A DNA stretch of 64,000 nucleotides, taken from contig NZ_CP067101.1 in NCBI RefSeq assembly GCF_016616425.1, positions 2,976,001 through 3,040,000 of the forward strand, in the 5' to 3' direction. The first letter of the stretch is position 1. Every line of letters starts with the position of its first letter. Source of the DNA: Bradyrhizobium diazoefficiens (GTDB lineage: Bacteria; Pseudomonadota; Alphaproteobacteria; Rhizobiales; Xanthobacteraceae). This document shows positions 692 to 24,605 of this stretch, one piece after another. The notes under the pieces are model-generated. The model saw nothing but the letters and a program-made list of their open reading frames with translations. It was not told the DNA's origin and made no database searches. The position numbers were made by a program, and so were the translations under genes.

Positions 692-793
692 GTCCGCTTG
701 TCTCACGCTTTGGCAGCGCGGCCAAGCCGTGTTATCGGTTCGCCGAGCCGCCAAAGGGCGGCCATCCGGGAAACGTCCACAAGGGTCAGTTGC
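692..793. promoter_or_regulatory. Divergent promoter region between otnC and the tetronate dehydrogenase gene
   Basis: These 102 bp separate divergently oriented genes of one pathway, so both promoters must lie here or just inside the genes. A GCCGCC/GGCGGC hairpin (747-752 with 757-762) is visible. No clear regulator palindrome is seen and no regulator gene adjoins, so the control mechanism is unknown. Confidence 0.4.
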
Positions 794-1711: not shown

Positions 1712-1726
1712 GTTAAGGGGATTCCG

Positions 1727-3948: not shown

Positions 3949-5640
3949 ATGTTTGCCAGACTTTCCATCCGCGCCAAGATCATCAGTGTCGTGGCGTTCC
4001 TGCTGGTTGCGATGACCGGCATGGGCCTGCTCGCCGTCATGAAGATGCGTGCAATCAATGCCAACACTGTCGACATCAGCACGAACTGGATGCCGAGCGT
4101 GCGGGCGTTGGGCGATGTCCGGGCGGCCGTCATCACCTACCGTAATGTGGTCCGCGAGCACATGCTGGCGGAGACGATGGATGAAAAGCTCGCGAACGAG
4201 GAGACCGCCGGAGTCGTGATGGAGGCGTTGGCTAAAGCTCGTCAACAATACGAGCCAATGATCGCTTCGCCGGAAGAGCGCGCGCTGTACACCGAGTGGT
4301 CCAGGCTCTGGGGAGAATACCAGAAGGGCGTCGAAGAGGTGATGGAGCTGTCGCGCATGGCAATCGGCAAGGTCCCGCACGAGGCTCATGAGCTGAACAC
4401 AAAGACGGTGAACAAGATCGGGCTCCAGTCTGACGATGTCCTGCGCAAGGACATCGAACTCAACATCAAGGGTGGCGAGCAGGCCGCCCGGGATGCCGCT
4501 GACAGCTACTTCCACGCTTTCCTGCTCGTTGCGATTATGCTCGGGGCTGTTGTCGTGACCGGCACCGGCGTCAGCTTCTATCTCGTCCGCGACGTCTCCA
4601 GCAGCATCGGCTCGATCACCGAGCCGATGCAGGCGCTGGGCAAGGGCGATCTTTCGGCCGAAGTCCCGCATCGCGGCGAGAAGACCGAGATCGGCGCGAT
4701 GGCCGACGTGCTCCAGATCTTCAAGGAGGCGCTGATCGCCAAGAAGGCCGCGGACGAAGCTGCGGCCGCGGATGCCGAAGCCAAGATCGAGCGCGGCCGC
4801 CGCGTCGACAACATCACCCGCGAATTCGAAACCATGATCGGCGAGATCGTCCAGACCGTGTCGTCGGCTTCAACTCAGTTGGAGGCCTCCGCCTCGACGT
4901 TGACCTCGACCGCCGAGCGCTCGCAGAGGCTGGCCACCACGGTTGCCGGCGCTTCCGAGGAAGCCTCGACCAACGTGCAGTCGGTGGCCTCGGCGACCGA
5001 GGAGATGGCCTCGTCGGTGGGCGAGATCGGCCGTCAGGTGCAGGAATCCGCGCGGATGGCAGGCGATGCCGTCGGTCAGGCGCGGGCCACCACCGAGCGC
5101 GTCAGCGAACTGTCCAAGGCGGCCGCCCGCATCGGCGACGTCGTCGAGTTGATCAACACCATCGCCGGCCAGACCAACCTGCTTGCCCTGAACGCGACCA
5201 TCGAGGCCGCTCGGGCCGGCGAAGCCGGCCGCGGTTTTGCGGTGGTCGCCTCCGAGGTGAAGGCGCTCGCCGAGCAGACCGCGAAGGCGACCGGCGAAAT
5301 CGGTCAGCAGATCTCGGGCATCCAGGTGGCGACCAACGATTCGGTCGGCGCCATCAGGGAAATCTCCTCGACCATCGAGCGTCTCTCGGAAATCTCGTCG
5401 GCGATCGCAGCCGCGGTGGAAGAACAGGGCGCGGCGACGCAGGAGATCGCCCGCAACGTACAGCAAGCCGCGCAGGGCACCCAGCAGGTCTCCTCCAACA
5501 TCAGCGACGTGCAGCGCGGTGCGACCGAGACCGGCTCGGCCTCCTCGCAGGTGCTGTCGGCTGCGCAAATGCTGTCGAACGATTCGGGTCGGCTGAAGAG
5601 CGAGGTCAGCAAGTTCCTGGCCAACGTCCGCGCGGCGTGA
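3949..5640 (+). CDS. Methyl-accepting chemotaxis protein (transmembrane chemoreceptor)
   Basis: The 563-residue protein has the standard receptor layout. Transmembrane helix 1 lies at about residues 10-32, a periplasmic helical (4HB-type) sensor at about 33-188, transmembrane helix 2 at about 189-210, a HAMP domain to about 262, and a cytoplasmic coiled-coil signalling domain to the end. The signalling tip, which contacts CheW/CheA, is recognisable around residues 400-435 ([20 protein letters not shown]). It reports a small-molecule ligand to the flagellar chemotaxis system; the ligand is unknown. It stands alone, 168 bp after otnK, so a role in sensing tetronates is only a guess from position. 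Confidence 0.93.
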
Positions 5641-8592: not shown

Positions 8593-10248
8593 ATGTCGTC
8601 AGCGCAAGCTAATCCGGCCCGGATCACGGAAGCCTACGACGTTGTCATCGTAGGCGCGGGCTTTGCCGGCATGTATATGCTGCACCGCCTGCGCCAGCTT
8701 GGATTCTCCGCGCGCGTCTACGAGCAGGGCGGCGGTGTCGGCGGCACCTGGTACTGGAACCGCTATCCCGGCGCGCGCTGCGATGTCGAGAGCATGCAAT
8801 ATTCCTACTCGTTCTCGGATGAGCTCCAGCAGGACTGGGACTGGAACGAGCGCTACGCGCCGCAGCCAGAGATATTGAAATACGCAAACCACGTCGCGGA
8901 TCGCTTTGATCTGCGCCGTGACATTCAGTTCGACACCCGCGTCGAGCGCGCCGTCTTCGATGAGCGTGCGAAGCGCTGGTTTGTGAGGGTCTCGGGCAGC
9001 AAGACAGTTGAAGCCCAGTTCGTTGTGCTCGCGACAGGCTGTCTCTCGAACGCGCGCAAGCCCGACATCAAGGGGCTCGACAACTTTAGAGGTCCGGTCT
9101 ACCACACCGGCAACTGGCCACATGAGCCGGTCGACTTCACGGGTTTGCGCGTGGGCCTGATCGGCACGGGCTCATCAGGCATCCAGTCGGCACCGATCAT
9201 TGCCGAGCAGGCGAAACATCTGACGGTGTTTCAGCGTACTGCCAACTTCTCGATTCCCGCCCGCAACGCTGCCTTGACCGACGAGGAGCGCGATGCGTTC
9301 CGCAAGAATTATCCCGAGATCCGCCGCTTCGCCCGCGAGGTCGCGCGCAGCGGCATCTATGCCGAGCAGCCCGATCGTGGCGCGCTCGACGATAGCGACG
9401 AGACGAGGCGCGAAAAATACGCGGCGCGCTGGGAGCGTGGCGGGCTCACCTTCATGTATGTCTATAACAATCTCGGACTGGATCCGGCCGCCAACGACAC
9501 TGCTGCCACTTTTGTCCGCGGCAAGATCGCCGAAATCGTGAAGGATCCCGAAACCGCGAGGCTGCTTCAGCCGGACAGCCACCCGATCGGCACCAAGCGC
9601 ATCTGCATCGACACCGACTATTTCGCGACCTTCAACCGGCCCAACGTCTCGCTGGTCGACATCAAGACCCATCCGATTCAAGAGATCACGGCGAACGCCG
9701 TGCGCGTTGCGGGGAAGGACCACGAGGTCGATGCGCTGGTGCTGGCGACCGGCTTCGACGCCATGACCGGATCGGTGGCGAAGATCGATATTCACGGCCG
9801 CGGCGGGCACGCGCTGAACCGGAAATGGGCGGAAGGGCCAAAGACTTATCTCGGGCTGATGAGTGCGGGCTTTCCGAACCTCTTCATCATCACCGGGCCC
9901 GGCAGCCCGTCGGTGCTGTCCAACATGATCGTGTCGATCGAGCAGCATGTCGACTGGATCGCCGACTGCCTTGTCCACATGCGCAAGCAGGACCTTGCCA
10001 CCATCGAAGCGGGCAGGGAGGCCGAGGACAAATGGGTCGCCCATGTCAACGAGGTCGCCCATGGCACGCTCTATCCGCAGGCCAATTCCTGGTACATGGG
10101 TGCCAACATCCCCGGCAAGCCGCGCATCTTCATGCCCTATATCGGCGGCGTCGGCGTCTACCGGCGGATCTGCGACGAGGTCGCGACGAAGGGATATGAG
10201 GGGTTCGAGATGGAGCGGCTGGAGCAGCCGCAGGCGGCGGCGTCGTAA
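8593..10248 (+). CDS. Flavin-containing Baeyer-Villiger monooxygenase (type I)
   Basis: The 551-residue protein has the two dinucleotide-binding folds and the fingerprint of type I BVMOs. The FAD motif VGAGFAGMY is near residue 21, GGVGGTWYWNRYPGARCD near 44, the FxGxxxHxxxWP fingerprint (FRGPVYHTGNWP) at about 165-176, and the NADPH motif GTGSSGIQ near 190. Such enzymes use NADPH and O2 to turn ketones into esters or lactones in the cytoplasm. The ATG follows a GAGGGAG site. It is adjacent and divergent to an acyl-CoA/flavoenzyme pair and near acyl-CoA synthetases, consistent with catabolism of an alicyclic or long-chain ketone. Substrate not predictable. Confidence 0.92.
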   Translation: MSSAQANPARITEAYDVVIVGAGFAGMYMLHRLRQLGFSARVYEQGGGVGGTWYWNRYPGARCDVESMQYSYSFSDELQQDWDWNERYAPQPEILKYANHVADRFDLRRDIQFDTRVERAVFDERAKRWFVRVSGSKTVEAQFVVLATGCLSNARKPDIKGLDNFRGPVYHTGNWPHEPVDFTGLRVGLIGTGSSGIQSAPIIAEQAKHLTVFQRTANFSIPARNAALTDEERDAFRKNYPEIRRFAREVARSGIYAEQPDRGALDDSDETRREKYAARWERGGLTFMYVYNNLGLDPAANDTAATFVRGKIAEIVKDPETARLLQPDSHPIGTKRICIDTDYFATFNRPNVSLVDIKTHPIQEITANAVRVAGKDHEVDALVLATGFDAMTGSVAKIDIHGRGGHALNRKWAEGPKTYLGLMSAGFPNLFIITGPGSPSVLSNMIVSIEQHVDWIADCLVHMRKQDLATIEAGREAEDKWVAHVNEVAHGTLYPQANSWYMGANIPGKPRIFMPYIGGVGVYRRICDEVATKGYEGFEMERLEQPQAAAS

Positions 10249-10360: not shown

Positions 10361-10483
10361 CGGAGGGAGCCTGCCATGACAAAACGTGAAGTTGCCGCGC
10401 CAGGCAATGCATTGCAGCGCCCTTGTCATCGGCCATCGGCGGTCTAATTAATGCAGACGCATCTTTCCGCCGGAGCCCCTCGC

Positions 10484-11359
10484 ATGACCGACATCCCCGC
10501 CTACGAGCCGCCCAAAGTCTGGACCTGGAACAAGGAGAATGGCGGGCAATTCGCCAGCATCAACCGGCCGATCGCCGGCCCTACCCACGACAAGGAGCTT
10601 CCGGTCGGCCGCCATCCGCTCCAGCTTTATTCGCTGGCAACGCCGAACGGCGTGAAGGTCACGGTGATGCTGGAAGAGCTCCTGGCGCTCGGCCATAACG
10701 GCGCCGAATACGATGCCTGGCTGATCAGAATAGGCAATGGTGATCAGTTCGGCAGCGGCTTCGTCGACATCAACCCGAACTCGAAAATCCCCGCGCTGAT
10801 GGACCGCTCCGGTCCCGAGCCGATCCGGGTCTTCGAGTCCGGCTCGATCCTGTTCTATCTCGCCGAGAAGTTCGGCGCCTTCCTGCCCAAGGATATCAAG
10901 TCCCGCACCGAGGCGATGTCCTGGCTGTTCTGGCAGATGGGCAGCGCGCCCTATCTCGGCGGCGGCTTTGGCCATTTCTACGCCTATGCGCCGTTCAAGA
11001 TCGAATACGCCATCGACCGCTTCGCGATGGAGACGAAGCGCCAGCTCGACGTCCTCGACCGGCGCCTTGCCGACAACGAATATCTCGCGGGCAAGGAGTA
11101 TACGATCGCCGACATGGCGGTGTGGCCCTGGTACGGCGCGCTCGCCAAGGGGCTGGTCTATGGCGCCGGCGAATTCCTCTCCGTGCAGGACTACAAGAAC
11201 GTGCAGCGCTGGACCGATCAGATCGCCAAGCGTCCGGCCGTGAAGCGCGGCCGCATGGTCAACCGCGTCTCCGGCGATCCTGCGAGCCAGCTCCACGAGC
11301 GCCACGACGCGAGCGACTTCGAAACCAAGACCCAGGACAAGATCGCGCTGGCGACGTAG
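10484..11359 (+). CDS. yghU: Glutathione S-transferase, YghU-like (nu class)
   Basis: The 291-residue protein matches the length and layout of the YghU/YfcG glutathione transferases. It has an N-terminal lead (PPKVWTWNKENGGQFASINRP), a thioredoxin-like domain with LATPNGVKVTVMLEE near residue 55 and the NPNSKIPAL...ESGSIL glutathione-binding segment, then an all-helical C-terminal domain. The family acts on organic hydroperoxides or as a disulfide-bond reductase in the cytoplasm. The ATG at 10484 (MTDIPAYEPP) is preferred over the one at 10451, which would add eleven unrelated residues. It stands between two repeat elements and is probably monocistronic. Confidence 0.88.
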   Translation: MTDIPAYEPPKVWTWNKENGGQFASINRPIAGPTHDKELPVGRHPLQLYSLATPNGVKVTVMLEELLALGHNGAEYDAWLIRIGNGDQFGSGFVDINPNSKIPALMDRSGPEPIRVFESGSILFYLAEKFGAFLPKDIKSRTEAMSWLFWQMGSAPYLGGGFGHFYAYAPFKIEYAIDRFAMETKRQLDVLDRRLADNEYLAGKEYTIADMAVWPWYGALAKGLVYGAGEFLSVQDYKNVQRWTDQIAKRPAVKRGRMVNRVSGDPASQLHERHDASDFETKTQDKIALAT

Positions 11360-11475: not shown

Positions 11476-12753
11476 TCACGCCATGCTCAGCTCGTGGCGG
11501 CCGACCACCATCCAGTGCACCTCGTCCGGACCGTCGGCAAAGCGCAGGTGCCGTACGTCCTGATACATCTCGGCCAGCGGGGTCCAGTGCGAGATGCCGG
11601 TGGCGCCGTGCATCTGGATCGCCTGGTCGATGATCTTGCAGGCGCGCTCGGGCACCATGGCCTTGACCATGGAGACCCAGACCCTGGCCTCCTTGTTGCC
11701 GAGCACGTCCATGGCCTTCGCGGCCTTCAGCACCATCAGCCGCATCGCCTCGATCTCGCAGCGCGCCTGGGCGATGATCTGCATGTTGCCGCCGAGATGG
11801 GCGATCTTCTTGCCGAAGGCTTCGCGGGTGAGGCCACGCTGCACCATCAGGTCGAGCGCCTTCTCGGCCTTGCCGATGGTGCGCATGCAGTGATGGATGC
11901 GCCCCGGTCCGAGGCGGAGCTGCGAGATTTCGAAGCCGCGGCCCTCGCCGAGCAGCATGTTCTCCTTCGGGACTCGCACATTGTTGAAGCGCATGTGCAT
12001 GTGGCCGCGCGGTGCGTGGTCCTGGCCGAACACGTACATGGGGCCGAGCACCTCGACGCCGGGCGTGTCGCGCGGCACCAGGATCTGCGACTGCTGCTTG
12101 CTCGGCGCCGCGTCCGGATTGGTCTTCACCATCACGATGAGGATCTTGCAGCGGGGATCGCCTAAACCCGAGATGTAATATTTCTCGCCATTGATGACCC
12201 ATTCGTCGCCGACGAGCTTTGCCGTGGTCGAGATGTTCTTGGCGTCGGAGGAGGCGACGTTCGGCTCGGTCATGACATAGGCCGAGCGGATCTCGCCGTT
12301 GAGCAGCGGCTTCAGCCACTTCTCCTTCTGCTCCTTGGTGCCGACGCGCTCCAGCACCTCCATGTTGCCGGTGTCGGGCGCCGAGCAGTTCATCGTCTCG
12401 GACGCCAGCGGGCTCTTGCCGAGCTCGGATGCGATGTAGGCGTAGTCGAGGTTCTTCAGGCCCTGGCCGGTCTCGTCATCGGGCAGGAAGAAGTTCCAGA
12501 GGCCTTCCTGCTTGGCCTTGTTCTTGGCCTTTTCAAGCACTTCGAGCTGCCTCGGCGTGAAGCTCCAGCGATCCTCCTTGGTCTCGCCGGCCTTGGCGAA
12601 CTCGATCGACATCGGCTCGACGGTGTCGCGGATAAATTTCTTGACGTGATCGTAGAGCGGCCGGACCTGGTCCGACATACGGAGATCGTTGAGCTCGTCG
12701 CCGGGATTGAGGGTGTAGTTGGTGGTGCGTGGAATGTAGGTGTGCTTTGTCAT
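11476..12753 (-). CDS. Acyl-CoA dehydrogenase of the ACAD10/ACAD11 (LvaC-like) type
   Basis: The 425-residue FAD enzyme has the acyl-CoA dehydrogenase layout: MTEPNVASSDA near residue 165, GEKYYISGLGD, and a C-terminal FAD/substrate region. The segments GPGRIHHCMRTIG (about residue 283) and DGPDEVH (about 406) match the ACAD10/ACAD11 subgroup. In mammals those domains are fused to a kinase of the aminoglycoside-phosphotransferase fold, and both handle 4-hydroxyacyl-CoA through a phosphorylated intermediate. Bacterial LvaC does the same in levulinate catabolism. A matching kinase gene lies at 15299-16285. The ATG at 12753 has a GGGAGGA site. Ordinary alpha,beta-dehydrogenation is the alternative. 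Confidence 0.9.
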   Translation of the reverse strand: MTKHTYIPRTTNYTLNPGDELNDLRMSDQVRPLYDHVKKFIRDTVEPMSIEFAKAGETKEDRWSFTPRQLEVLEKAKNKAKQEGLWNFFLPDDETGQGLKNLDYAYIASELGKSPLASETMNCSAPDTGNMEVLERVGTKEQKEKWLKPLLNGEIRSAYVMTEPNVASSDAKNISTTAKLVGDEWVINGEKYYISGLGDPRCKILIVMVKTNPDAAPSKQQSQILVPRDTPGVEVLGPMYVFGQDHAPRGHMHMRFNNVRVPKENMLLGEGRGFEISQLRLGPGRIHHCMRTIGKAEKALDLMVQRGLTREAFGKKIAHLGGNMQIIAQARCEIEAMRLMVLKAAKAMDVLGNKEARVWVSMVKAMVPERACKIIDQAIQMHGATGISHWTPLAEMYQDVRHLRFADGPDEVHWMVVGRHELSMA

Positions 12754-12918
12754 TGTTCCTCCCGGGGACGCTGAGATCGTTGCGCGCAAGAATAGTCGCA
12801 GTGCGGCCAAAGTGCGAGCGCGCATTTTTCACGTGGGCCATGCCATGCGATGGAATTCGCGAAGGCGTTTGAAATGTTGTTTGAATGGCGGCGGTCTGCA
12901 GCCGTGCTGCGCTCACCG

Positions 12919-13024
12919 CTGTCATCGCCGGGCGAAGACCGGGCGATCCAGTATCCCAGAGACAGCAGTCATTGAATCGATGAGCCGCGGTGTACCGGAT
13001 TCCCCGCTTTCGCGGGGAATGACG
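12919..13024. repeat. Palindromic intergenic repeat with terminal hairpin
   Basis: The outer arms read CATCGCCGGGCGAAGACC and GCGGGGAATGACGG. The right end forms a 9-bp hairpin, ATTCCCCGC (12999-13007) with GCGGGGAAT (13012-13020). It lies between the acyl-CoA dehydrogenase and the VOC gene and may terminate the upstream minus-strand VOC transcript. Confidence 0.6.
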
Positions 13025-13036
13025 GCGGCGGCTACT

Positions 13037-13420
13037 TCAGTTCGGCATCCTATGCATCGCGCAGATCTTGTTGCCGTCGAGGTCGCGCAAATAGGCGAGA
13101 TACATCTTGCCGGCCGCGCCGCCATCGCGGATGCCCGGTGGATTCTCACAGGTCTTGCCGCCGGCTGCGAGGCCGGCCGCGTGCCAGGCTTCGACCTGCT
13201 CCGGCGAGCTGCAGGCAAAGCCGATAGTGCCGCCGTTTGCGCACGTCGCCGGCTCGCCGTTGATCGGCTTCGACACCGAGAACACGCCGGTCTTGGTGAT
13301 GTAGAAGATGCGATGGCCGTCGACCCTGGCAGGCCGGACTTCGAGCGTGCTCAGCAGTTGGTCGTAGAACGTCTTGGCCTTGTCGAGGTCGTTGGTGCCG
13401 ATCATGATATGCGAGAACAT
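13037..13420 (-). CDS. VOC/glyoxalase-fold small protein
   Basis: The 127-residue protein has one vicinal-oxygen-chelate domain. It opens with the family strand MFSHIMIGTNDLDKAKTFYD and ends with the metal-site strand YLRDLDGNKICAMHR. An H and a D/E metal ligand set seems possible (His4, a central Glu, and the distal N/K region), but the last ligand is not clearly a Glu. Members range from glyoxalase I-like isomerases to resistance proteins, so no reaction is assigned. The ATG at 13420 gives a full-length single domain. It is flanked by repeat elements on both sides and is probably transcribed alone. Confidence 0.8.
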   Translation of the reverse strand: MFSHIMIGTNDLDKAKTFYDQLLSTLEVRPARVDGHRIFYITKTGVFSVSKPINGEPATCANGGTIGFACSSPEQVEAWHAAGLAAGGKTCENPPGIRDGGAAGKMYLAYLRDLDGNKICAMHRMPN

Positions 13421-13459
13421 TTGCCCATTCCCTTCTGCGCTCTCACAAACCGAGAAGCC

Positions 13460-13547
13460 GTAGGGTGGGCAAAGCGCAGCGTGCCCACCACGGCATTCGA
13501 AAATGGCTATGGTGGGCACGGCGCGAGTGCGCCTTTGCCCACCCCAC
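13460..13547. repeat. Palindromic intergenic repeat, GTAGGGTGGGC family (second copy)
   Basis: Same family as 11370-11462: GTAGGGTGGGC at the left, GCCCACCCCAC at the right, with internal GTGCCCACCA and TGGTGGGCAC arms. It lies between two minus-strand genes, directly upstream of the VOC gene. Confidence 0.85.
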
Positions 13548-13553
13548 AAGAAA

Positions 13554-14333
13554 TCAAAACGCCGTATAGCCGCCGTCGATCACGAATGTATCCGCCGTGT
13601 GATACGACGACGCCTTGCTCATGAGATACACCGCGATGCCGCCGAAATCGGATGCCTCGCCGAAGCGGCGCACCGGAATCCGGGGCATCACGTTGGCGAC
13701 GAATTTCTCGTTGGCCATGATGCCTGATGTCATGTCGCTCTTGATCCAGCCGGGCAGGATCGCATTGGCGGTGACGCCGTAGCGGGCGAGCTCGACGCCG
13801 AGCGCGCGCACCAGCGCGTTGATGGCGGCCTTGGTCGCGGCGTAGTGCTCGTTACGCGCGGTGCCGAAGATCGAGGCGAGGCTCGAGGTCGCCACCAGCC
13901 GGCCGAAGGGATCGCCGGCATTGGCGCGCTCGGTCATGTGTCTTGCCGCGGCCTGAAAGGCGTGGAATACGCCGTCGAGATTGGTCGCAAACATCGTGCG
14001 CCATTCCTCTTCAGTGCGCTCGATGAAGGAACGCCGGCCGCCGCCGCCGATGCCGGCATTGGCGAAGCAGCCGTCGACCCGGCCGAAGCTATCGAGCGTC
14101 GCCTTGATCGCGGCGTTGACCGAGGCCGGATCGGTGACGTCGCAGACGCGGGTATCGACCTTGCCGGGAAGGCCAGCCATGCTCGCGGCGGCAGCCTTGT
14201 TCTTGTCGGGGTTGCGTCCCCAGATCGAGACGTTGCAGCCCTGGCCGGCGAGCGCCTGTGCGATGCCAAGGCCGATGCCGCCATTGCCGCCGGTGATCAC
14301 GGCCACGCGGCCGGTGAGATCGAAAATGTTCAT
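13554..14333 (-). CDS. Short-chain dehydrogenase/reductase (SDR)
   Basis: The 259-residue classical SDR has the cofactor motif TGGNGGIG near residue 14, NAGIGG near 90, and the catalytic Ser-Tyr-Lys set in SSLASIFGTARNEHYAATK (about 140-158). PGWIKSDMT follows. It should oxidise a secondary alcohol or reduce a ketone with NAD(P)(H) in the cytoplasm. The ATG at 14333 starts MNIFDLTGRVAVITGG, the normal family N-terminus. It is divergent from an enoyl-CoA hydratase gene 180 bp away and sits in the acyl-CoA catabolic region. A LvaD-like role in reducing a 4-oxoacyl group is possible but not shown. Confidence 0.88.
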   Translation of the reverse strand: MNIFDLTGRVAVITGGNGGIGLGIAQALAGQGCNVSIWGRNPDKNKAAAASMAGLPGKVDTRVCDVTDPASVNAAIKATLDSFGRVDGCFANAGIGGGGRRSFIERTEEEWRTMFATNLDGVFHAFQAAARHMTERANAGDPFGRLVATSSLASIFGTARNEHYAATKAAINALVRALGVELARYGVTANAILPGWIKSDMTSGIMANEKFVANVMPRIPVRRFGEASDFGGIAVYLMSKASSYHTADTFVIDGGYTAF

Positions 14334-14513
14334 GGCGCGTTTCCTGTTCTTGGCAAGACATCTTGGCATGCCGCGCATCAGCCGCTGCGCGCAAGATTGC
14401 TTGCGATGCTCCGATCACCATGGACAAGACCGCGCCAAAAATCAAATATACGCCCCGGCAAAACGAATTCCGGTCTGCGAAACTGACGCAAGGCCGCAAC
14501 TGACGAGGACACC

Positions 14514-15302
14514 ATGCAGTTCAAACACGTCACGCTCGATTTCGATGGTTCGGTCGCGATCCTCAAGCTCGATCATCAGGAGGTGATGAACGCGGTCTCC
14601 GTGGACATGCTGGGCGGTCTTGCCGAAGCGCTCGACGCGATCGAGGAGAAGAAGGACGAGGTGCGCTGCGTCGTCCTGACCGGGGCGGGGCGGGCGTTCT
14701 GCACCGGCGCGAATCTTCAGGGGCGCAACAATCAGTCGAAGAAGACCAAGGCCGGCTTGACGCTGGAGACCGGGTTTCATCCGTTCCTGCGCCGCATCCG
14801 CAATCTGCATTGCCCGATCGTGACCGCGGTCAACGGCCCGGCCGCGGGTGCCGGCATGAGCTTCGCGCTGCTCGGCGACATGATCCTGTGCGCGCGCTCG
14901 TCCTATTTCCTGCAGGCCTTCCGCCGCATCGGTCTCGTGCCGGATTGCGGCTCGACCTGGCTCTTGCCGCGTCTCATTGGCCGGGCGCGTTCGATCGAAT
15001 TGTCGTTGATGGGCGAGCGCCTGCCGGCCGAGAAGGCGCTGGAATGGGGCCTCGTCAACCGCGTCTACGATGACGGCGTGCTGATGGAGGAGGCGATGAA
15101 GCTCGCGCGCGAGCTCGCCAGCGGCCCGACGGTCGCGCTGTCGCTGATCCGCAAGCTCTACTGGGACAGCCCGGAAAATTCCTTCGAGGATCAGCTCAAC
15201 CTCGAATTCCAGTGCCAGCTCCGCGCCGGCGACACCCAGGACTTCCGCGAAGGCGTTGGCGCGTTCCTGGAAAAGCGGCCCGCGCAGTTCAAAGGCAAAT
15301 GA
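14514..15302 (+). CDS. Enoyl-CoA hydratase/isomerase (crotonase family, PaaG-like)
   Basis: The 262-residue crotonase has the oxyanion-hole segments GRAFCTGANLQG near residue 62 and NGPAAGAGMSFAL near residue 108. The RRIGLVPDCGSTWLLPR segment (about 139-155) has an Asp where hydratases have the second Glu, as in PaaG-type isomerases. It acts on an enoyl-CoA by hydration or double-bond migration. Its TGA overlaps the ATG of the kinase gene (ATGA), so the two are translationally coupled and the DUF6285 gene follows 3 bp later. This puts it in the same operon as the proposed 4-hydroxyacyl-CoA kinase system. Confidence 0.9.
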   Translation: MQFKHVTLDFDGSVAILKLDHQEVMNAVSVDMLGGLAEALDAIEEKKDEVRCVVLTGAGRAFCTGANLQGRNNQSKKTKAGLTLETGFHPFLRRIRNLHCPIVTAVNGPAAGAGMSFALLGDMILCARSSYFLQAFRRIGLVPDCGSTWLLPRLIGRARSIELSLMGERLPAEKALEWGLVNRVYDDGVLMEEAMKLARELASGPTVALSLIRKLYWDSPENSFEDQLNLEFQCQLRAGDTQDFREGVGAFLEKRPAQFKGK

Positions 15303-16285
15303 TCGAGGCCGAGCTTTCACACAGCGTCCAGCGCTGGTGCAAGGGCGCGACCGGCGTCACCGGCGCGGCAAAACTGTCAGGTGGCGCCAGCCAGGAAACC
15401 TGGCGCTTCGACATCGAGCATCCCGATGGTGCGATCGGCGCGATCCTGCGCCGCTCGCCGAAAGGATACGGCGCGGCGCCGACCCGCGCGGCGGGGCTTG
15501 CCGCCGAGGCGAGGTTGATGCAGCTCGCCTGTGAGGCAGGCGTGCCGTCGCCGCGCGTGATGCATGTTTTGGTGCCCGAGGACGATCTCGGCACCGGCTT
15601 CGTCATGCAGCGTGTCGAAGGCGAGACCATCGCGCGCAAGATTCTTCGCGATGACGAATACGCGGCGGCGCGGCCGCACCTCGCGCGGCAGATCGGTGGC
15701 ATTCTCGCTGACCTGCATAAACTACCGCAGGACAAGCTGCCGGCGCTGCGCAGCCGGAACGCGACCCAGGAGATCGGCGAGTTCGAGCGCGACTATCGCA
15801 GCCTGAACTGGCCCAAGCCCGTATTCGAGCTGGCGCTGCGCTGGCTGCGCGACCACGATCCAGGTCCTGGCGCCGAGACGACGCTGGTGCATGGCGATTT
15901 CCGCAACGGCAACCTCATCATCGGTCCCGACGGCATCCGCGCCGTGCTCGACTGGGAGCTTGCCCATCTCGGCGACCCCATGGAGGATCTCGGCTGGGTC
16001 TGCGTCAACTCCTGGCGCTTCGGCGAGATCGACAAGCCCGTCGGCGGCTTTGGTTCGCGTGAGGAGCTGTTCGCGGGCTATGAGGCCGCGGGCCGCAACG
16101 TCGATCCGGCGCGCGTCAAGTTCTGGGAAGTGATGGGCACACTGCGCTGGGGCATCATGTGCGGCGGCATGATGCAGCGCTTTCGCGAGGGTCCGGATCA
16201 TTCCATGGAACGCGCCATGATCGGCCGTCGCGCCTCGGAGACCGAAATCGATCTGTTGCGGCTCTTGGTGCCGCGCGGGAGCTGA
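15299..16285 (+). CDS. Aminoglycoside phosphotransferase-fold kinase, LvaA/ACAD10-11 kinase type
   Basis: The 328-residue protein has a protein-kinase-like APH fold. A nucleotide loop is near the N-terminus (LSGGASQETWRFDI), the catalytic loop LVHGDFRNGN is at about residues 197-206, and the metal motif LDWELAHLGDPMEDLGW at about 217-233. Close relatives are found fused to or beside acyl-CoA dehydrogenases, and LvaA phosphorylates 4-hydroxyacyl-CoA with help from a small partner, LvaB. Here the start overlaps the stop of an enoyl-CoA hydratase gene, a small DUF6285 gene follows 3 bp after, and an ACAD10/11-type dehydrogenase lies 2.5 kb away. Antibiotic resistance is very unlikely. Substrate is inferred. 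Confidence 0.88.
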   Translation: MIEAELSHSVQRWCKGATGVTGAAKLSGGASQETWRFDIEHPDGAIGAILRRSPKGYGAAPTRAAGLAAEARLMQLACEAGVPSPRVMHVLVPEDDLGTGFVMQRVEGETIARKILRDDEYAAARPHLARQIGGILADLHKLPQDKLPALRSRNATQEIGEFERDYRSLNWPKPVFELALRWLRDHDPGPGAETTLVHGDFRNGNLIIGPDGIRAVLDWELAHLGDPMEDLGWVCVNSWRFGEIDKPVGGFGSREELFAGYEAAGRNVDPARVKFWEVMGTLRWGIMCGGMMQRFREGPDHSMERAMIGRRASETEIDLLRLLVPRGS

Positions 16286-16288
16286 GAC

Positions 16289-16666
16289 ATGCAGGACGAA
16301 CCGACACCCGTCGAGCTGACCAAGGCGGTCGCCGATTTCCTCCGCAGCGACATCGCGCCGCTGATCTCGGGCCATCAGGCCTTCAAGCTGCGCGTCGCAA
16401 TCAACATCCTCGACCTCGTCACGCGGCAGCTGACGCTGGAGGAGGGGAGCGATGCGAAGGAGGTCGAGCGCCTGCACGCGCTGCTCGGCCTTGACGGCTC
16501 GGTGATGGATCTCAACCGCGTCCTCGCCGAGCGTATCGCCAAAGGCGAGATGGATCTGGCAACGCCGGGCCTTGCCGAGCATCTGTGGGCGACCACGATG
16601 GAGAAGCTCGCGGTCGATCAGCCGAACTACGCATCCTACAAGCGGGAGCTGTCGCGAGATTCGTAG
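16289..16666 (+). CDS. DUF6285 small protein, probable partner of the APH-like kinase (LvaB-like)
   Basis: The 125-residue, mostly helical, cytoplasmic protein has no signal peptide or membrane segment. It begins MQDEPTPVELTKAVADFL and contains an Arg-rich helix GHQAFKLRVAINILDLVTRQ and a conserved-looking LWATTMEKLAVDQPNY near the end. I recognise it as DUF6285, which usually follows APH-like kinase genes near acyl-CoA dehydrogenases. By position and size it corresponds to LvaB, needed for LvaA activity. It starts 3 bp after the kinase stop behind a GGGAGCTG site. Its TAG stop lies inside the first arm of a perfect 32-bp inverted repeat, so the extreme C-terminus may have been changed by repeat insertion. 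Confidence 0.82.
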   Translation: MQDEPTPVELTKAVADFLRSDIAPLISGHQAFKLRVAINILDLVTRQLTLEEGSDAKEVERLHALLGLDGSVMDLNRVLAERIAKGEMDLATPGLAEHLWATTMEKLAVDQPNYASYKRELSRDS

Positions 16667-16875: not shown

Positions 16876-17655
16876 CTACTTCCCCACCCATTTCGGCGGC
16901 CGCTTCTCCGAGAACGCCTTCGGGCCCTCGATGTAGTCCTGCGAGGCGGCCATCGCCTTCACCGCCGGGTAGTCGCGCTGCTCCGCGATCGCCTGTTCCA
17001 GCGATACGCCGAGCCCCTTCTGGATGGCCTGCTTCGAAGCCCGGATCGACATCGGCGAGTTCCTGGCGATCGTCTCCGCCCAGCGCAGCGTGCCCGACAG
17101 CGCCTCGCCTTGCGGCACCACCTCGTTGACGAAGCCGAGCTCGAGACCTTCCTTGGCGCTGACATGGCGTGCAGTCAGGATCATGCCCATGGCTCGCTTC
17201 AACCCGATCTGGCGCGGCAACCGGTGCAGGCCGCCGGCGAGCGCGGCGAGCCCGACGCGCGGCTCGGGCAGCGCAAAGGTGGCGTTCTCCGAGGCGATAA
17301 TGAGATCGCAGGCGAGCGCGATCTCGAAGCCGCCGCCCATCGCCACACCATTCACGGCGGCGATGATCGGCTTGTCGCAGTCGAACCGCGCGGTGAGGCC
17401 GGCAAAGCCGCCCTTGTCCCAGCCGCGCTTGCCGCCGGCCGCCTGCCACTTCAGATCGTTGCCGGCGCAGAACGCCTTGTCGCCGGCGCCGGTGACGATC
17501 GCAATCCATTGCTCGGGATCGGCGGAGAAATCGTCAAACACCTTTTGGAGCTCGAAATGTGCATCCGTGTGCAGCGCATTGTAGACCTCGGGCCGCGACA
17601 GCGTGACGATCGTGATCGGACCCTTGCGTTCCACCTTTGAAAATTTCAGCTCCAT
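16876..17655 (-). CDS. Enoyl-CoA hydratase (crotonase family, CaiD-like)
   Basis: The 259-residue crotonase has both catalytic-type segments. The oxyanion hole is in KAFCAGNDLKW (about residues 61-71) and NGVAMGGGFEIALACD (about 106-121), and FALPEPRVGLAALAGG carries the Glu of the hydratase site. It should hydrate a trans-2-enoyl-CoA or dehydrate its hydroxyacyl-CoA counterpart in beta-oxidation-type catabolism. The ATG at 17655 is preceded by GGGAGAG at the right distance, so the longer upstream frame is rejected. The gene is divergent from the acyl-CoA dehydrogenase at 17868, which suggests a joint pathway. Confidence 0.9.
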   Translation of the reverse strand: MELKFSKVERKGPITIVTLSRPEVYNALHTDAHFELQKVFDDFSADPEQWIAIVTGAGDKAFCAGNDLKWQAAGGKRGWDKGGFAGLTARFDCDKPIIAAVNGVAMGGGFEIALACDLIIASENATFALPEPRVGLAALAGGLHRLPRQIGLKRAMGMILTARHVSAKEGLELGFVNEVVPQGEALSGTLRWAETIARNSPMSIRASKQAIQKGLGVSLEQAIAEQRDYPAVKAMAASQDYIEGPKAFSEKRPPKWVGK

Positions 17656-17867: not shown

Positions 17868-19142
17868 TTGGATTTCTCACTGCCTGCCGATCTCGTCGCC
17901 TATCTCGGAGAGCTCGATCGTTTCATCGCACGCGAGATCAAGCCGCTCGAGGAGGCCGACGACAACATCCGCTTCTTCGATCATCGCCGCGAATGGGCGC
18001 GCACCGATTTCGAGAATGGAGGCCTGCCGCGGCACGAATGGGAAGCGCTGCTGCGCAAGGCCAAGGATCTCGCCGATGCCGCCGGCCATTTGCGCTTTCC
18101 TGTGCCGAAGCAATATGGCGGCAAGGACGGCTCCAATCTCTGGATGGCCGTGATTCGCGAGCATTTTGCCGCGAAGGGTCTCGGCCTGCACAACGACCTC
18201 CAGAACGAACATTCGATCGTCGGCAATTTCCCCATCGTCACCATGCTCGACCGCTACGGCCGCGACGACCAGAAGGCGATGATCGACGGTTCGATCAAGG
18301 GCAAGTACCGCATCACGTTTGGCCTCACCGAGCCGCATCACGGTTCGGACGCCACCCACATGGAGACGCGCGCGGTGCCGGCGACCCGCGACAACGTCAA
18401 GGGCTGGATCATCAACGGCGAGAAGATGTGGACGACCGGCATGCATGTCGCCACGCATTGCGCGCTGTTTGCGCGCACCTCGGGCAATGACGGCGATGCC
18501 CGCGGCATCAGCTGCTTCCTGGTGCCGGCGAACAGCCATGGCGTCAGGATCGAAGAGTATATGTGGACATTCAACATGCCGACCGATCATCCGCGCGTCA
18601 GCTTCACCGACGTGTTTGTGCCTGAAGACGCGCAGTTCGGCGAGGTCGGCCGCGGCCTGTCGCTGGCGCAGTGCTTCGTGCACCAGAACCGTATCCGGCA
18701 GGCGGCCAGCTCGCTCGGCGCTGCGGTCTATTGCATCAATGAGAGCGTCAAATATGCGCGCGAACGAAGGCCGTTCGGCAGGGCGCTCGCCGAGAACCAG
18801 GCGATCCAGTTCCCCCTGGTTGAGCTCGCCACGCAAGCCGAGATGCTGCGCCTGTTGATCCGCAAGACCGCCTGGGAGATGGACCAGCTCACCGAGGAGC
18901 AGATCGAGCGCACGCTCTCCGACCGAGTCTCCATGTGCAATTACTGGGCAAATCGCCTCTGCTGCGAGTCCGCCGACCGCGCCATGCAGGTCCACGGCGG
19001 CATGGGCTACTCACGCCACAAGCCGTTCGAGCACATCTACCGCCATCACCGACGCTATCGCATCACGGAGGGGAGCGAGGAGATCCAGATGCGGAAAGTG
19101 GCGGGGTTCCTGTTCGGCTATATGGGGCCGGGGAAGCACTGA
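17868..19142 (+). CDS. Acyl-CoA dehydrogenase
   Basis: The 424-residue FAD protein has the full acyl-CoA dehydrogenase layout. An N-terminal helical domain comes first, then the beta domain with FGLTEPHHGSDATHMETRA near residue 150 and GEKMWTTGM near 186. The C-terminal helices carry RERRPFGRALAENQAIQFP near 300, QVHGGMGYSRHKPFE near 376 and ITEGSEEIQMR near 404, where the catalytic base Glu is expected. It starts at TTG, supported by CGGGAGAG seven bases upstream and by the family N-terminus MDFSLP. It feeds electrons to ETF while forming an enoyl-CoA for the divergent hydratase. Substrate chain type unknown. Confidence 0.92.
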   Translation: MDFSLPADLVAYLGELDRFIAREIKPLEEADDNIRFFDHRREWARTDFENGGLPRHEWEALLRKAKDLADAAGHLRFPVPKQYGGKDGSNLWMAVIREHFAAKGLGLHNDLQNEHSIVGNFPIVTMLDRYGRDDQKAMIDGSIKGKYRITFGLTEPHHGSDATHMETRAVPATRDNVKGWIINGEKMWTTGMHVATHCALFARTSGNDGDARGISCFLVPANSHGVRIEEYMWTFNMPTDHPRVSFTDVFVPEDAQFGEVGRGLSLAQCFVHQNRIRQAASSLGAAVYCINESVKYARERRPFGRALAENQAIQFPLVELATQAEMLRLLIRKTAWEMDQLTEEQIERTLSDRVSMCNYWANRLCCESADRAMQVHGGMGYSRHKPFEHIYRHHRRYRITEGSEEIQMRKVAGFLFGYMGPGKH

Positions 19143-22085: not shown

Positions 22086-22895
22086 ATGGAAGAGCGCGTC
22101 TCGATCTCGATCTCGGAAGGCGTTGCCGACGTGCGCCTGGTGCGCGCCGACAAGATGAACGCGCTGGATCAGGCGATGTTCGAGGCCCTTGTCGCCGCGA
22201 CCGACCGGCTTTCGAAGGAAAAAAGCGTGCGCGCGGTCGTGCTGTCGGGCGAAGGCCGCGCCTTCTGCGCGGGGCTCGACATGGGGCGTTTTGCGGCCAT
22301 GAAGGAGAAGGGCAGCAACGGAATTCCGGGTGGCGAAAATCGTGATCTCACCAGGCGCACCCACGGCCAGGCGAACTTCCCGCAAGCCGCGGTGTGGGGC
22401 TGGCGCCAGTTGCCGGTGCCGGTGATCGCGGCCGTGCACGGCGTCGCCTTCGGCGGCGGCTTCCAGCTGTCGCTCGGCGCCGACATGCGCTTCCTCAGTG
22501 CGGATGCGCGGATGTCGATCATGGAGATCAAATGGGGCCTCGTGCCTGATATGGCGGGCACACCGATCCTGGCGAGCCTCGTGCGCGACGACATCCTGCG
22601 CGATCTCACCTACACCGGCCGTATTTTCTCTGCGCAGGAGGCGATGGCTTACGGCCTTGCCACGCGCATCTGCGATGACCCGCGTGCCGCGGCGCTGGAA
22701 CTCGCTCGCGAGATCGCCGGCAAGAGCCCCGATGCGATCCGTGCGGCCAAGCGGATGCTGAACAATCTGTCGGTCGATCCGGGGCCGGCACTGCTCGCGG
22801 AGTCGGTCGAGCAGCAGAAGCTGATCGGCAGCTCCAATCAGACAGAGGCTGTGCGCGCCAATCTGGAAAAGCGTGCGGCGAAGTTTGCGGATTAG
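22086..22895 (+). CDS. Enoyl-CoA hydratase/isomerase (crotonase family)
   Basis: The 269-residue crotonase has GRAFCAGLDMGRF near residue 59, HGVAFGGGFQLSLGADMRF near 119, and SIMEIKWGLVPDMAGT near 145, where a Glu and an Asp line the active site as in double-bond isomerases or hydratases. It has a longer loop after the first oxyanion segment (about residues 70-100) than typical EchA proteins. The ATG at 22086 follows GGGGAGAATTCGTCC. It is divergent from the DECR-like reductase 106 bp away, a natural pairing for unsaturated acyl-CoA degradation, and is followed by an acyl-CoA synthetase after a repeat. Confidence 0.9.
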   Translation: MEERVSISISEGVADVRLVRADKMNALDQAMFEALVAATDRLSKEKSVRAVVLSGEGRAFCAGLDMGRFAAMKEKGSNGIPGGENRDLTRRTHGQANFPQAAVWGWRQLPVPVIAAVHGVAFGGGFQLSLGADMRFLSADARMSIMEIKWGLVPDMAGTPILASLVRDDILRDLTYTGRIFSAQEAMAYGLATRICDDPRAAALELAREIAGKSPDAIRAAKRMLNNLSVDPGPALLAESVEQQKLIGSSNQTEAVRANLEKRAAKFAD

Positions 22896-23008: not shown

Positions 23009-23060
23009 AGCGTGATTGTGTCGATACCCTCTAACCCGACGAAAGATCGGAAAACAAAAG

Positions 23061-24605
23061 ATGAGCGAAACGTCCCACTTCCTCGGCATCGTCTCCGGCG
23101 ACCGCCGTCGCAGCCACGCCGAAGTCGCTGGCCGCACTGACCGCATCGCAGGCGGCCTCGCCAGGATCGGCGTCCGTCAAGGCGATTGCGTCTGCATGTT
23201 GATGCGCAACGACATCGCCTTCCTGGAAGCCGCCTATGCCGCGATGCGGCTGGGCGCCTATGGCGTGCCGATCAACTGGCACTTCAAGCCGGAAGAGATC
23301 AATTACATGCTTGAGGATTCCGGCACGTCCGTGCTGATTGCGCATGCCGACATGCTGCACGCCTTGCGCGATGCGATTCCGGACGGCGTCACCGTGCTCA
23401 GCGTGCCGACGCCGCCGGAGATCCTGTCCAGCTACAAGATCGATCCGGACTATCTGACGACCCCTAGCTTCGCGATCGATTTCGAATCCTGGCTCGCACA
23501 GCAGCAGCCCTATGACGGCCCGGTCGTGCCGCAGCCGATGAACATGATCTACACGTCGGGCACCACAGGCCATCCCAAGGGCGTGCGGCGCAACGCGCCG
23601 ACGCCGGAGCAGCAGGCGGCCGGCGAGCGCATGCGCGCGATGATCTACGGGCTCAAGCCCGGCGCCCGCGCGATCCTGCCGGGCCCGCTCTATCATTCGG
23701 CGCCGAACTCGTTCGGCATTCGCGCGGGCAAGCTCGGCGGCGCGTTGGTGCTGATGCCGCGTTTCGAGGCCGAAGAGTTCCTGGAGCTGATCGAGCGCTA
23801 CAAAATCGACACCATCTTCATGGTGCCGACCATGTTCATCCGCCTGATGAAGCTGCCCGAGGCGGTCCGCAAGCGGTACGACGTTTCCTCGCTGCGCCAC
23901 GTCATTCACGCCGCGGCGCCGTGTCCGGCCGACGTCAAGCGCGCCATGATCGAATGGTGGGGACCGGTGATCTACGAATTCTACGGCTCGACCGAATCAA
24001 GCGCCGTCACCTTCGCGACGTCGGAGGACGCGCTGAGAAAGCCGGGCACCGTCGGCAGGATTTCGCCCGGCGCCGAGCTGCGCTTCCTCGGCGAGGACGG
24101 CCGCGTGCTGCCGGCCGGCGAGATCGGCGAGATCTATTCGCGCATCGCCGGGATGGCCGATTTCACCTATCACAACAAGCCGGAGAAGCGCGCCGAGATC
24201 GACCGCGACGGTTTCATCACCTCGGGCGATGTCGGGTACATCGACGAGGACGGCTACGTCTTCATCTGCGACCGCAAGCGCGACATGGTGATATCAGGCG
24301 GCGTCAACATCTACCCGGCCGAGATCGAGTCCGTGCTGCACGCCGTGCCCGGCGTCCATGATTGCGCCGTGTTCGGAATCCCCGACGCCGAGTTCGGCGA
24401 GGCATTGATGGCCGTGGTCGAGCCGCAGGCCGGCGTCACGCTCGAGGCCGGCGACGTCCGCGCAAGGCTGAAGGCTTCGCTCGCCGATTACAAGGTGCCC
24501 AAGCATATCGAGATCCGCAGCGGCCTGCCGCGCGAAGACTCAGGAAAAATCTTCAAGCGCCGCCTGCGCGATCCCTATTGGGAGCGGGTGGGACGGAAGA
24601 TCTGA
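23061..24605 (+). CDS. Acyl-CoA synthetase (AMP-forming)
   Basis: The 514-residue adenylate-forming enzyme has YTSGTTGHPKG near residue 164, the substrate/adenylate motif EFYGSTESS near 307, TSGDVGYIDEDGYVFI near 386, and the C-terminal lysine region EDSGKIFKRR near 495. It converts a carboxylic acid to acyl-CoA. The ATG at 23061 gives MSETSHFLGIVSGD, a natural N-terminus; the preceding in-frame ATG at 23016 would add 15 atypical residues. It differs clearly from the synthetase at 19325, so the region carries two independent acid-activating steps. Substrate unknown. Confidence 0.9.
   Translation: MSETSHFLGIVSGDRRRSHAEVAGRTDRIAGGLARIGVRQGDCVCMLMRNDIAFLEAAYAAMRLGAYGVPINWHFKPEEINYMLEDSGTSVLIAHADMLHALRDAIPDGVTVLSVPTPPEILSSYKIDPDYLTTPSFAIDFESWLAQQQPYDGPVVPQPMNMIYTSGTTGHPKGVRRNAPTPEQQAAGERMRAMIYGLKPGARAILPGPLYHSAPNSFGIRAGKLGGALVLMPRFEAEEFLELIERYKIDTIFMVPTMFIRLMKLPEAVRKRYDVSSLRHVIHAAAPCPADVKRAMIEWWGPVIYEFYGSTESSAVTFATSEDALRKPGTVGRISPGAELRFLGEDGRVLPAGEIGEIYSRIAGMADFTYHNKPEKRAEIDRDGFITSGDVGYIDEDGYVFICDRKRDMVISGGVNIYPAEIESVLHAVPGVHDCAVFGIPDAEFGEALMAVVEPQAGVTLEAGDVRARLKASLADYKVPKHIEIRSGLPREDSGKIFKRRLRDPYWERVGRKI

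What the first reader, a model, noticed from the sequence alone, without database searches (positions are those of the whole stretch)
11476..16666. Possible new LvaABC/ACAD11-like route for 4-hydroxyacyl-CoA
An APH-fold kinase (15299-16285), a small DUF6285 protein 3 bp after it, and a coupled crotonase lie near an ACAD10/ACAD11-type dehydrogenase (11476-12753, GPGRIHHCMR and DGPDEVH motifs). In Pseudomonas levulinate catabolism LvaA+LvaB phosphorylate 4-hydroxyacyl-CoA and LvaC converts it onward; mammalian ACAD10/11 fuse the same kinase and dehydrogenase. Here the parts are split and joined by BVMO, GST, SDR and synthetase genes rather than a levulinate operon, so the natural substrate (for example a lactone-derived 4-hydroxy acid) is likely different and undescribed.
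Basis: partly seen in the sequence, partly recalled or inferred. Interest (0 to 1): 0.78.

Follow-up and report, generated by a model that had tools for sequence, protein, structure and literature searches.

The report
LvaAB-like kinase module in Bradyrhizobium
A soil bacterium carries a small enzyme set that probably tags hydroxylated fatty-acid-like molecules with phosphate so the hydroxyl can be removed; it is a divergent relative of a known levulinate-degrading system, with partner enzymes and a substrate that are not yet described.

Summary
The genes are real and correctly placed, except that the ACAD11-type dehydrogenase (ACADa, 11476-12753) is on the minus strand. The kinase (15299-16285) and the DUF6285 protein (16289-16666) form a coupled operon with a crotonase. 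A Pseudomonas operon with the published lvaR/lvaABCDEFG gene order carries DUF6285 in the lvaB place, and its kinase shares a clade with the window kinase, away from ACAD11-pair kinases. The LvaA/LvaB link is therefore supported. ACADa keeps the reported phosphate-pocket residues of ACAD11. Two things were missed. (1) The genome has a separate, adjacent ACAD11-type kinase-dehydrogenase pair elsewhere. (2) The most conserved partner of this kinase in Alphaproteobacteria is a second dehydrogenase, ACADb (17868-19142), without that pocket: 34 of 35 genomes with a window-type kinase (42% identity or more) have it. ACADa orthologues are rarer (14 of 231 genomes), but all 14 carry kinase and ACADb. 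Best reading: a DUF6285-dependent 4-hydroxyacyl-CoA kinase feeding ACADa (or another ACAD11-type enzyme), with ACADb and crotonases in the same pathway. The substrate is unknown; the BVMO is missing from the block in two close relatives, which weakens the lactone idea. New variant of a known kind.

The parts
14514..15302 (+). crotonase (enoyl-CoA hydratase/isomerase, NF004635/PRK05981), first gene of the coupled operon
   Evidence: Pfam ECH_1 189 bits; NCBIfam PRK05981 487 bits over cut-off 351; ATGA overlap with the kinase
15299..16285 (+). APH-fold kinase KIN, LvaA-type: probable 4-hydroxyacyl-CoA kinase
   Evidence: Pfam APH 129 bits; 33% to LvaA of a Pseudomonas lva-type operon, E 3e-42; clade with LvaA split from ACAD11-pair kinases at 100/100
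16289..16666 (+). DUF6285 protein, LvaB family: probable helical subunit of the kinase
   Evidence: PF19802 111 bits; DUF6285 in the lvaB position of an lva-type operon; fused to kinases elsewhere; AF2 model all-helical, pLDDT 84.7, pTM 0.53
11476..12753 (-). ACADa: ACAD11-type dehydrogenase, probable 4-phosphoacyl-CoA phosphate-eliminating enzyme
   Evidence: E 1.2e-116 to ACAD11; R626/R631/H634/R637/D753 equivalents all kept (residues from PMC12440821)
17868..19142 (+). ACADb: second acyl-CoA dehydrogenase, catalytic Glu, no HCMR pocket; most conserved genomic partner of the kinase in Alphaproteobacteria
   Evidence: Pfam ACAD domains; FVHQNRIRQAASSLG and TEGSEEIQ; 34 of 35 genomes with a window-type kinase have it. 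Start codon TTG uncertain
16876..17655 (-). second crotonase (DpgD/EchA19-like, below those models' cut-offs)
   Evidence: Pfam ECH_1 209 bits; NCBIfam scores; next to KIN-DUF6285 in L051, L063 and the same-genus loci
13554..14378 (-). SDR oxidoreductase between ACADa and the operon
   Evidence: Pfam adh_short_C2 200 bits; kept beside the module in L063
13037..13420 (-). glyoxalase/bleomycin-resistance-fold protein; membership in the pathway uncertain, start uncertain
   Evidence: Pfam Glyoxalase 26 bits
19325..20917 (-). acyl-CoA synthetase, candidate CoA-activating enzyme
   Evidence: NCBIfam PRK06187 662 bits; 49% to the ligase that heads the Sulfitobacter kinase-DUF6285-ACADb run
8593..10248 (+). 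Baeyer-Villiger monooxygenase of the phenylacetone/steroid monooxygenase type; possible upstream step, not shown, doubtful member
   Evidence: E 1e-196 to 1W4X; near the module in L052 and L063, but absent between NMO and GST in L056 and L058

Best explanation
The crotonase-kinase-DUF6285 operon encodes an LvaAB-type, DUF6285-dependent kinase that phosphorylates the hydroxyl of a 4-hydroxyacyl-CoA. An ACAD11-type enzyme (in Bradyrhizobium most likely ACADa, possibly also ACAD2 elsewhere in the genome) then eliminates the phosphate to give a 2-enoyl-CoA, and the crotonases hydrate it into beta-oxidation. ACADb is an ordinary-type dehydrogenase of the same pathway acting before or after this step. 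Shown here: gene families, conserved residues, clades, operon coupling, gene fusions, co-occurrence. Inferred: the phosphorylation, the phosphate elimination, the order of steps. Unknown: the substrate.
For: LvaB identity by architecture: Pseudomonas L247 has PrpR/sigma54 regulator - APH kinase - DUF6285 - ACAD (RLAPARLTHCMR) - SDR - ligase - DUF485 - SSF symporter, the lvaR/lvaABCDEFG make-up described in PMC6692424 and PMC9399607 (passages). DUF6285-linked kinases, window KIN and LvaA included, split from ACAD11-pair kinases with 100/100 support. HCMR (phosphate-pocket) ACADs lie in the locus with LvaA-type kinase-DUF6285 pairs in 64 of 80 named loci (the best 80 of 534 confirmed) and 36 of 37 Pseudomonas loci; ACAD11-type enzymes lie within 5 kb of window-kinase relatives in five other alphaproteobacterial genomes (G249, G267, G340, G391, G394). 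ACADa keeps R626, R631, H634, R637 and D753 equivalents. ACADa orthologues (72% identity or more; next match 58%) occur in 14 of 231 genomes, from 10 families, and all 14 have the kinase and ACADb. Kinase-DUF6285 fusions: read in 4 loci (L071, L073-L075) and in 7 of 80 named loci. A natural fusion folds with pTM 0.90.
Against: ACADa is not in the operon and is absent near the module in L063, whose genome has only one ACAD11-type match at E 1e-60. Among 25 fetched DUF6285 loci the stretch held ACADb in 12, an LvaC-type HCMR ACAD in 6 and neither in 7. The canonical pair elsewhere could be ACADa's true context. R176, a modelled CoA contact of the ACAD11 kinase, pairs with Q in KIN in one pairwise alignment (my reading). 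KIN is only 33% identical to LvaA, and window DUF6285 gave no BLAST hit to that LvaB at 1e-3; they are linked only through the Pfam model. PMC11342911 quotes 62% and 56% identity of ACAD10/11 to LvaC, which the L247 enzyme does not fit (31% to own ACAD2), so its identity with KT2440 LvaC is by gene order only. Co-occurrence p-values are not corrected for phylogeny.
Confidence: 0.6

Rival explanations
1. The working pair is kinase-DUF6285 with ACADb, and ACADa is a genus-level neighbour. ACADb either takes the phosphorylated acyl-CoA with a different pocket, or oxidises it ordinarily with electrons passed to ETF.
For: 34 of 35 genomes with a window-type kinase (42% identity or more) have ACADb and 3 of 196 others do. 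Direct neighbours in f2, f11 and f12 genomes. A Sulfitobacter pontiacus plasmid run ligase-kinase-DUF6285-ACADb-crotonase-crotonase-thiolase-TRAP has no HCMR enzyme in the 14 kb fetched. The ACADb helix FVH[QE]NRIRQAASS is nearly invariant and carries H and R where the two non-HCMR ordinary rows carry other residues.
Against: 36 of 37 ACADb genomes also hold an ACAD11-type enzyme somewhere; ACADb has Glu, not Asp, at the base and lacks R626/H634/R637 equivalents; all 14 ACADa genomes have the kinase.
Confidence: 0.2
2. The kinase phosphorylates another hydroxyl, for example a tertiary alcohol of a steroid or terpenoid acid, as 25-hydroxysteroid kinase does; phosphate is then eliminated by a lyase or crotonase.
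For: 25-HSK structures 9FSG/9FT5 are among the top five Foldseek rows (2, 4, 5) for the fused kinase model of a relative, and 9FSG is a weak phmmer hit for the window kinase (E 3.5e-4). The nearby BVMO is of the phenylacetone/steroid monooxygenase type.
Against: 25-HSK acts on free steroids, and its paper names no lyase gene nearby (passages of PMC8449060). The match to the ACAD11-type kinase 3DXP is stronger (E 1.5e-14). No steroid-ring gene was recognised among the genes scanned between 386 and 25195.
Confidence: 0.12
3. Chance neighbours: ACADa works with the canonical ACAD11-type kinase K2 coded 1.8 Mb away, and the kinase-DUF6285 pair serves an unrelated reaction.
For: K2 and ACAD2 lie side by side in the same genome; ACADa is on the opposite strand from the kinase.
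Against: ACADa orthologues occur only in genomes with the kinase and ACADb (14 of 14); within ACAD11-type genomes, 14 of 14 have ACADb against 22 of 75 others; synteny in 6 of 6 other same-genus genomes.
Confidence: 0.08

Closest known systems
Levulinate operon lvaRABCDEFG of Pseudomonas putida (LvaAB kinase, LvaC dehydrogenase)
   Same: LvaA-clade kinase followed directly by an LvaB/DUF6285 protein; a phosphate-pocket ACAD, an SDR and a CoA ligase nearby
   Different: Kinase 33% identical; no LvaR, DUF485 or symporter among the genes scanned; the ACAD is of the ACAD11 type and split off; an extra ACADb and two crotonases; no levulinate evidence
ACAD10/ACAD11 and their split bacterial pairs (own-genome K2-ACAD2)
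   Same: ACADa belongs to the ACAD11-type clade (100/100) and has the same active-site signature
   Different: The kinase is outside the ACAD11-pair kinase clade (100/100) and comes with DUF6285; the own-genome K2-ACAD2 pair has none, as the genome's one DUF6285 is in the window
25-hydroxysteroid kinase of Sterolibacterium (PDB 9FSG/9FT5, PMC8449060)
   Same: APH-fold kinase that phosphorylates an alcohol so that phosphate can be eliminated
   Different: Free tertiary steroid alcohol, lyase unknown; only distant sequence similarity
Sulfitobacter pontiacus plasmid run (NZ_CP049346.1)
   Same: Ligase (49%), kinase (51%), DUF6285, ACADb (69%), crotonases in one run
   Different: With thiolase and TRAP transporter; no ACADa in the stretch; function also unknown

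Membership tests
LvaAB-type kinase (LvaA + LvaB) | APH kinase in the LvaA clade | tested here: met
   Clade of the DUF6285-linked kinases incl. LvaA, split from ACAD11-pair kinases 100/100; place inside it (relative to the LvaA subclade) open
LvaAB-type kinase (LvaA + LvaB) | LvaB-family (DUF6285) protein coded next to the kinase | tested here: met
   PF19802 111 bits in the window; 86.5 bits for the lvaB-position protein of L247. KT2440 sequence itself not examined
LvaAB-type kinase (LvaA + LvaB) | Phosphorylates 4-hydroxyacyl-CoA | not testable with these tools
   needs enzyme assay
lva operon (levulinate catabolism) | lvaR, lvaABCDE, DUF485 and symporter in one operon | tested here: not met
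   No PrpR/sigma54, DUF485 or SSF match among the window genes scanned between 386 and 25195, against L247
ACAD10/11-type dehydrogenase (for ACADa) | R626, H634, R637 and Asp base (D753) of mouse ACAD11 | tested here: met
   Alignment to 8V3U/8V3V, residues from PMC12440821, comparison
ACAD10/11-type dehydrogenase (for ACADa) | Clade of ACAD11-like enzymes | tested here: met
   18-row clade with ACAD2-type enzymes 100/100; ACAD10/11 themselves were not rows of the tree
ACAD10/11-type dehydrogenase (for ACADb) | HCMR phosphate pocket and Asp base | tested here: not met
   FVHQNRIRQAASSLG and Glu base; own clade 100/100
ACAD10/11-type kinase | Kinase groups with ACAD11 kinase domain relatives | tested here: not met
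   KIN 57 bits to 3DXP and 41 to 8V3V, against 411 and 251 for K2; tree
25-hydroxysteroid kinase | Acts on 25-OH steroids; close sequence relation | tested here: inconclusive
   Fold match rank 2 for a fused relative; window kinase E 3.5e-4

The most novel reading that the evidence does not exclude
A third class of phosphoacyl-CoA-processing dehydrogenase: ACADb, with a catalytic Glu and a conserved H/N/R helix in place of the HCMR pocket, acts directly on the product of a DUF6285-dependent kinase, so that a widespread alphaproteobacterial pathway phosphorylates and deoxygenates a hydroxyacyl-CoA by chemistry different from LvaC/ACAD11.
Probability: 0.15. Interest if true: 0.8.

Novelty: new variant of a known kind. 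Interest (0 to 1): 0.52.

Why it matters
It gives DUF6285, a family of unknown function with 7,888 relatives of the window protein found in one search, a testable role as the constant partner of a 4-hydroxyacyl-CoA kinase. It suggests that the phosphorylate-then-eliminate strategy of ACAD10/11 exists in bacteria with two separate kinase clades, here in one genome, and points to ACADb as an overlooked partner with an unexplained active site.

Tried and rejected
Kinase + DUF6285 + ACADa as a simple LvaABC equivalent was the starting reading. Neighbourhoods first moved me to ACADb alone as the partner, then genome-wide co-occurrence brought ACADa back. Both results are reported.

Search for an lva operon by LvaC: PMC11342911 (passages) quotes 62% and 56% identity of ACAD10/11 to LvaC, so I searched 119 Pseudomonas genomes with the ACAD11-type enzyme and opened six extra copies; none was an lva operon. 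Searching by DUF6285 found one. The LvaC-position enzyme of L247 is 31% identical to own ACAD2 and scores 195 bits to ACAD11 8V3U. I could not reconcile this with the quoted 62%; the KT2440 sequence was not examined.

Papers: PMC11342911 abstract, discussion (part 1 of 2) and passages; PMC12440821 abstract, structure and discussion sections, passages; PMC6692424, PMC9399607, PMC9628823, PMC10949508 and PMC8449060 passages only; Rand et al. 2017 not held, known only through the papers above.
Full report
Setting. The window lies in a 7.14 Mb single-contig genome (window base 1 = G000:C1:2976001). The closest named DUF6285 proteins are Bradyrhizobium, so I call it Bradyrhizobium.

Anatomy. Between 5.6 and 25 kb the window holds a run of CoA-type catabolic genes: thiolase-like (5654-7171-), nitronate-monooxygenase-like (7207-8493-), BVMO (8593-10248+), GST (10451-11359+), ACADa (11476-12753-), glyoxalase fold, SDR (13554-14378-), crotonase (14514-15302+), kinase (15299-16285+), DUF6285 (16289-16666+), crotonase (16876-17655-), ACADb (17868-19142+), ligase (19325-20917-), SDR (21107-21979-), crotonase (22086-22895+), ligase (23016-24605+). 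The crotonase stop and kinase start share ATGA, and DUF6285 starts 3 bp after the kinase stop codon, so these three are one coupled operon by sequence.

ACADa is an ACAD11-type enzyme. It matches ACAD11 (8V3U) at 394 bits; after the three ACAD11 chains and 4HR3 (372 bits) the next chain scores 140. The residues that PMC12440821 (section read) ties to the 4-phosphate (R626, H634, R637, on the helix with R631, and base D753) are all present in RLGPGRIHHCMR and ADGPDEVH. It falls in a clade with the ACAD2-type enzymes at 100/100.

The same genome has a canonical pair elsewhere. Of 10 APH matches in the genome the best (188 bits) is K2 at 4793737-4794396, adjacent to ACAD2 at 4794685-4795893, 55% identical to ACADa. 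K2 scores 411 bits to 3DXP and 251 to the ACAD11 chain 8V3V; the window kinase only 57 and 41.

DUF6285 is the LvaB family. DUF6285 is over cut-off in 36 of 398 Pseudomonas genomes, at 38 places. I fetched 37 of the 38: all 37 have an LvaA-type kinase beside DUF6285, 36 an HCMR dehydrogenase in the fetched stretch, and 17 show kinase-DUF6285-ACAD-SDR-ligase in that order. One of them, L247, extended, reads PrpR/sigma54 regulator (divergent), kinase, DUF6285, ACAD, SDR (255 aa), ligase, DUF485, SSF symporter: the published lvaR/lvaABCDEFG make-up (passages of PMC6692424; PMC9399607). PMC6692424 reports, from Rand et al., that LvaB (12 kDa) interacts with LvaA and that both genes are needed. KT2440 itself was not examined.

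Kinase clades. A 41-row tree puts the DUF6285-linked kinases, with LvaA and the window kinase, on one side of a 100/100 split and the ACAD11-pair kinases on the other. Fusions were also read in L071 and L073-L075; equal open frames suggest them in 12 of 58 DUF6285 genomes of the class set (matched by eye, list). A natural fusion (Roseococcus, L181) folds with mean pLDDT 91.4 and pTM 0.90, so the two domains have a defined arrangement in the model.

Who is the partner? DUF6285 is in 26 of 249 proteobacterial genomes. In the 25 neighbourhoods fetched (the own genome is the 26th) a kinase relative is present in 25 of 25; the stretches (16-20 kb) also hold ACADb in 12, an LvaC-type HCMR enzyme in 6, neither in 7; ACADa only in the 6 same-genus genomes. 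L063, same family, keeps thiolase, NMO, BVMO, SDR, both crotonases, kinase, DUF6285 and ACADb but no ACADa, and its genome has one ACAD11-type match only (E 1e-60).

Genome-wide, in 231 Alphaproteobacteria (at most 7 to 21 candidates scored per genome, so counts are lower bounds): kinase relatives in 60, DUF6285 in 58 (all with the kinase), ACADb in 37 (36 with some kinase relative). With a 42% identity cut for window-type kinases, chosen after seeing the list, 34 of 35 have ACADb against 3 of 196 others. ACADa orthologues (72-100%, next match 58%) occur in 14 genomes from 10 families; all 14 have kinase and ACADb; among ACAD11-type genomes 14 of 14 have ACADb against 22 of 75 others. Mostly these genes are not adjacent, so the link is by presence, not position. 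Fisher p-values of the six tests run from 5e-7 to 4e-36 and ignore phylogeny. Kinase relatives lie within 5 kb of an ACAD11-type enzyme in five other genomes (G249, G267, G340, G391, G394) and of ACADb in six others (G087, G295, G334, G340, G420, G450) (the ACAD11 rows were those picked by eye).

Mechanism. Shown: families, residues, clades, fusions, co-occurrence. Inferred: KIN with DUF6285 makes a 4-phosphoacyl-CoA; ACADa (or ACAD2) eliminates phosphate to a 2-enoyl-CoA with FAD cycling as proposed for ACAD10/11 (PMC11342911, PMC12440821); crotonases hydrate it. ACADb, with a normal Glu base and no HCMR pocket, is placed in the same pathway at an unknown step. A Sulfitobacter plasmid shows ligase-kinase-DUF6285-ACADb-crotonases-thiolase-TRAP genes in one run, which suits import, activation and oxidation of an organic acid. 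A Thermus plasmid has an HCMR dehydrogenase-kinase-DUF6285-histidine phosphatase run.

Substrate. The BVMO is closest to phenylacetone and steroid monooxygenases and could yield an ester or lactone, but only neighbourhood ties it to the kinase. It is seen in L052 and L063 and absent between NMO and GST in L056 and L058; the other three same-genus stretches do not reach far enough to tell. APH-fold 25-hydroxysteroid kinase (PMC8449060 passages) is a reminder that the hydroxyl need not be at C4.

Verdict. A divergent LvaAB-type module with an ACAD11-type dehydrogenase and an overlooked second dehydrogenase: a new variant of a known kind, of medium interest, with clear tests.

Noticed in passing
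window 386-3780: Three-gene run: NAD-binding 3-hydroxyisobutyrate-dehydrogenase-like, xylose-isomerase-like TIM barrel, and SBD_N/NBD_C kinase; looks like four-carbon acid sugar catabolism (recalled, not tested).
   Followed up: no
window 3949-5640: Methyl-accepting chemotaxis protein with four-helix-bundle sensor next to the catabolic block.
   Followed up: no
L071, L073, L074, L075, L130, L131, L132, L152, L158, L165, L181: Kinase and DUF6285 fused into one protein in several lineages.
   Followed up: partly
L101 6345-6986; L138 8360-9070: Histidine phosphatase (His_Phos_1) gene beside kinase-DUF6285 in Thermus and Pseudomonas capeferrum, as reported beside lvaA in P. citronellolis (PMC6692424 passages); role unexplained.
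   Followed up: partly
L194 7228-8496, L195 7268-8536: 116 of 119 Pseudomonas genomes match the ACAD11-type dehydrogenase at E 1e-90; in two Pseudomonas genomes opened (L194, L195) no clear kinase lies beside it, so its kinase partner is unclear.
   Followed up: partly
window 17868-19142 and ACADb relatives: ACADb helix FVH[QE]NRIRQAASS is nearly invariant across families, with H and R where the two ordinary rows differ; could be a different charged pocket.
   Followed up: partly
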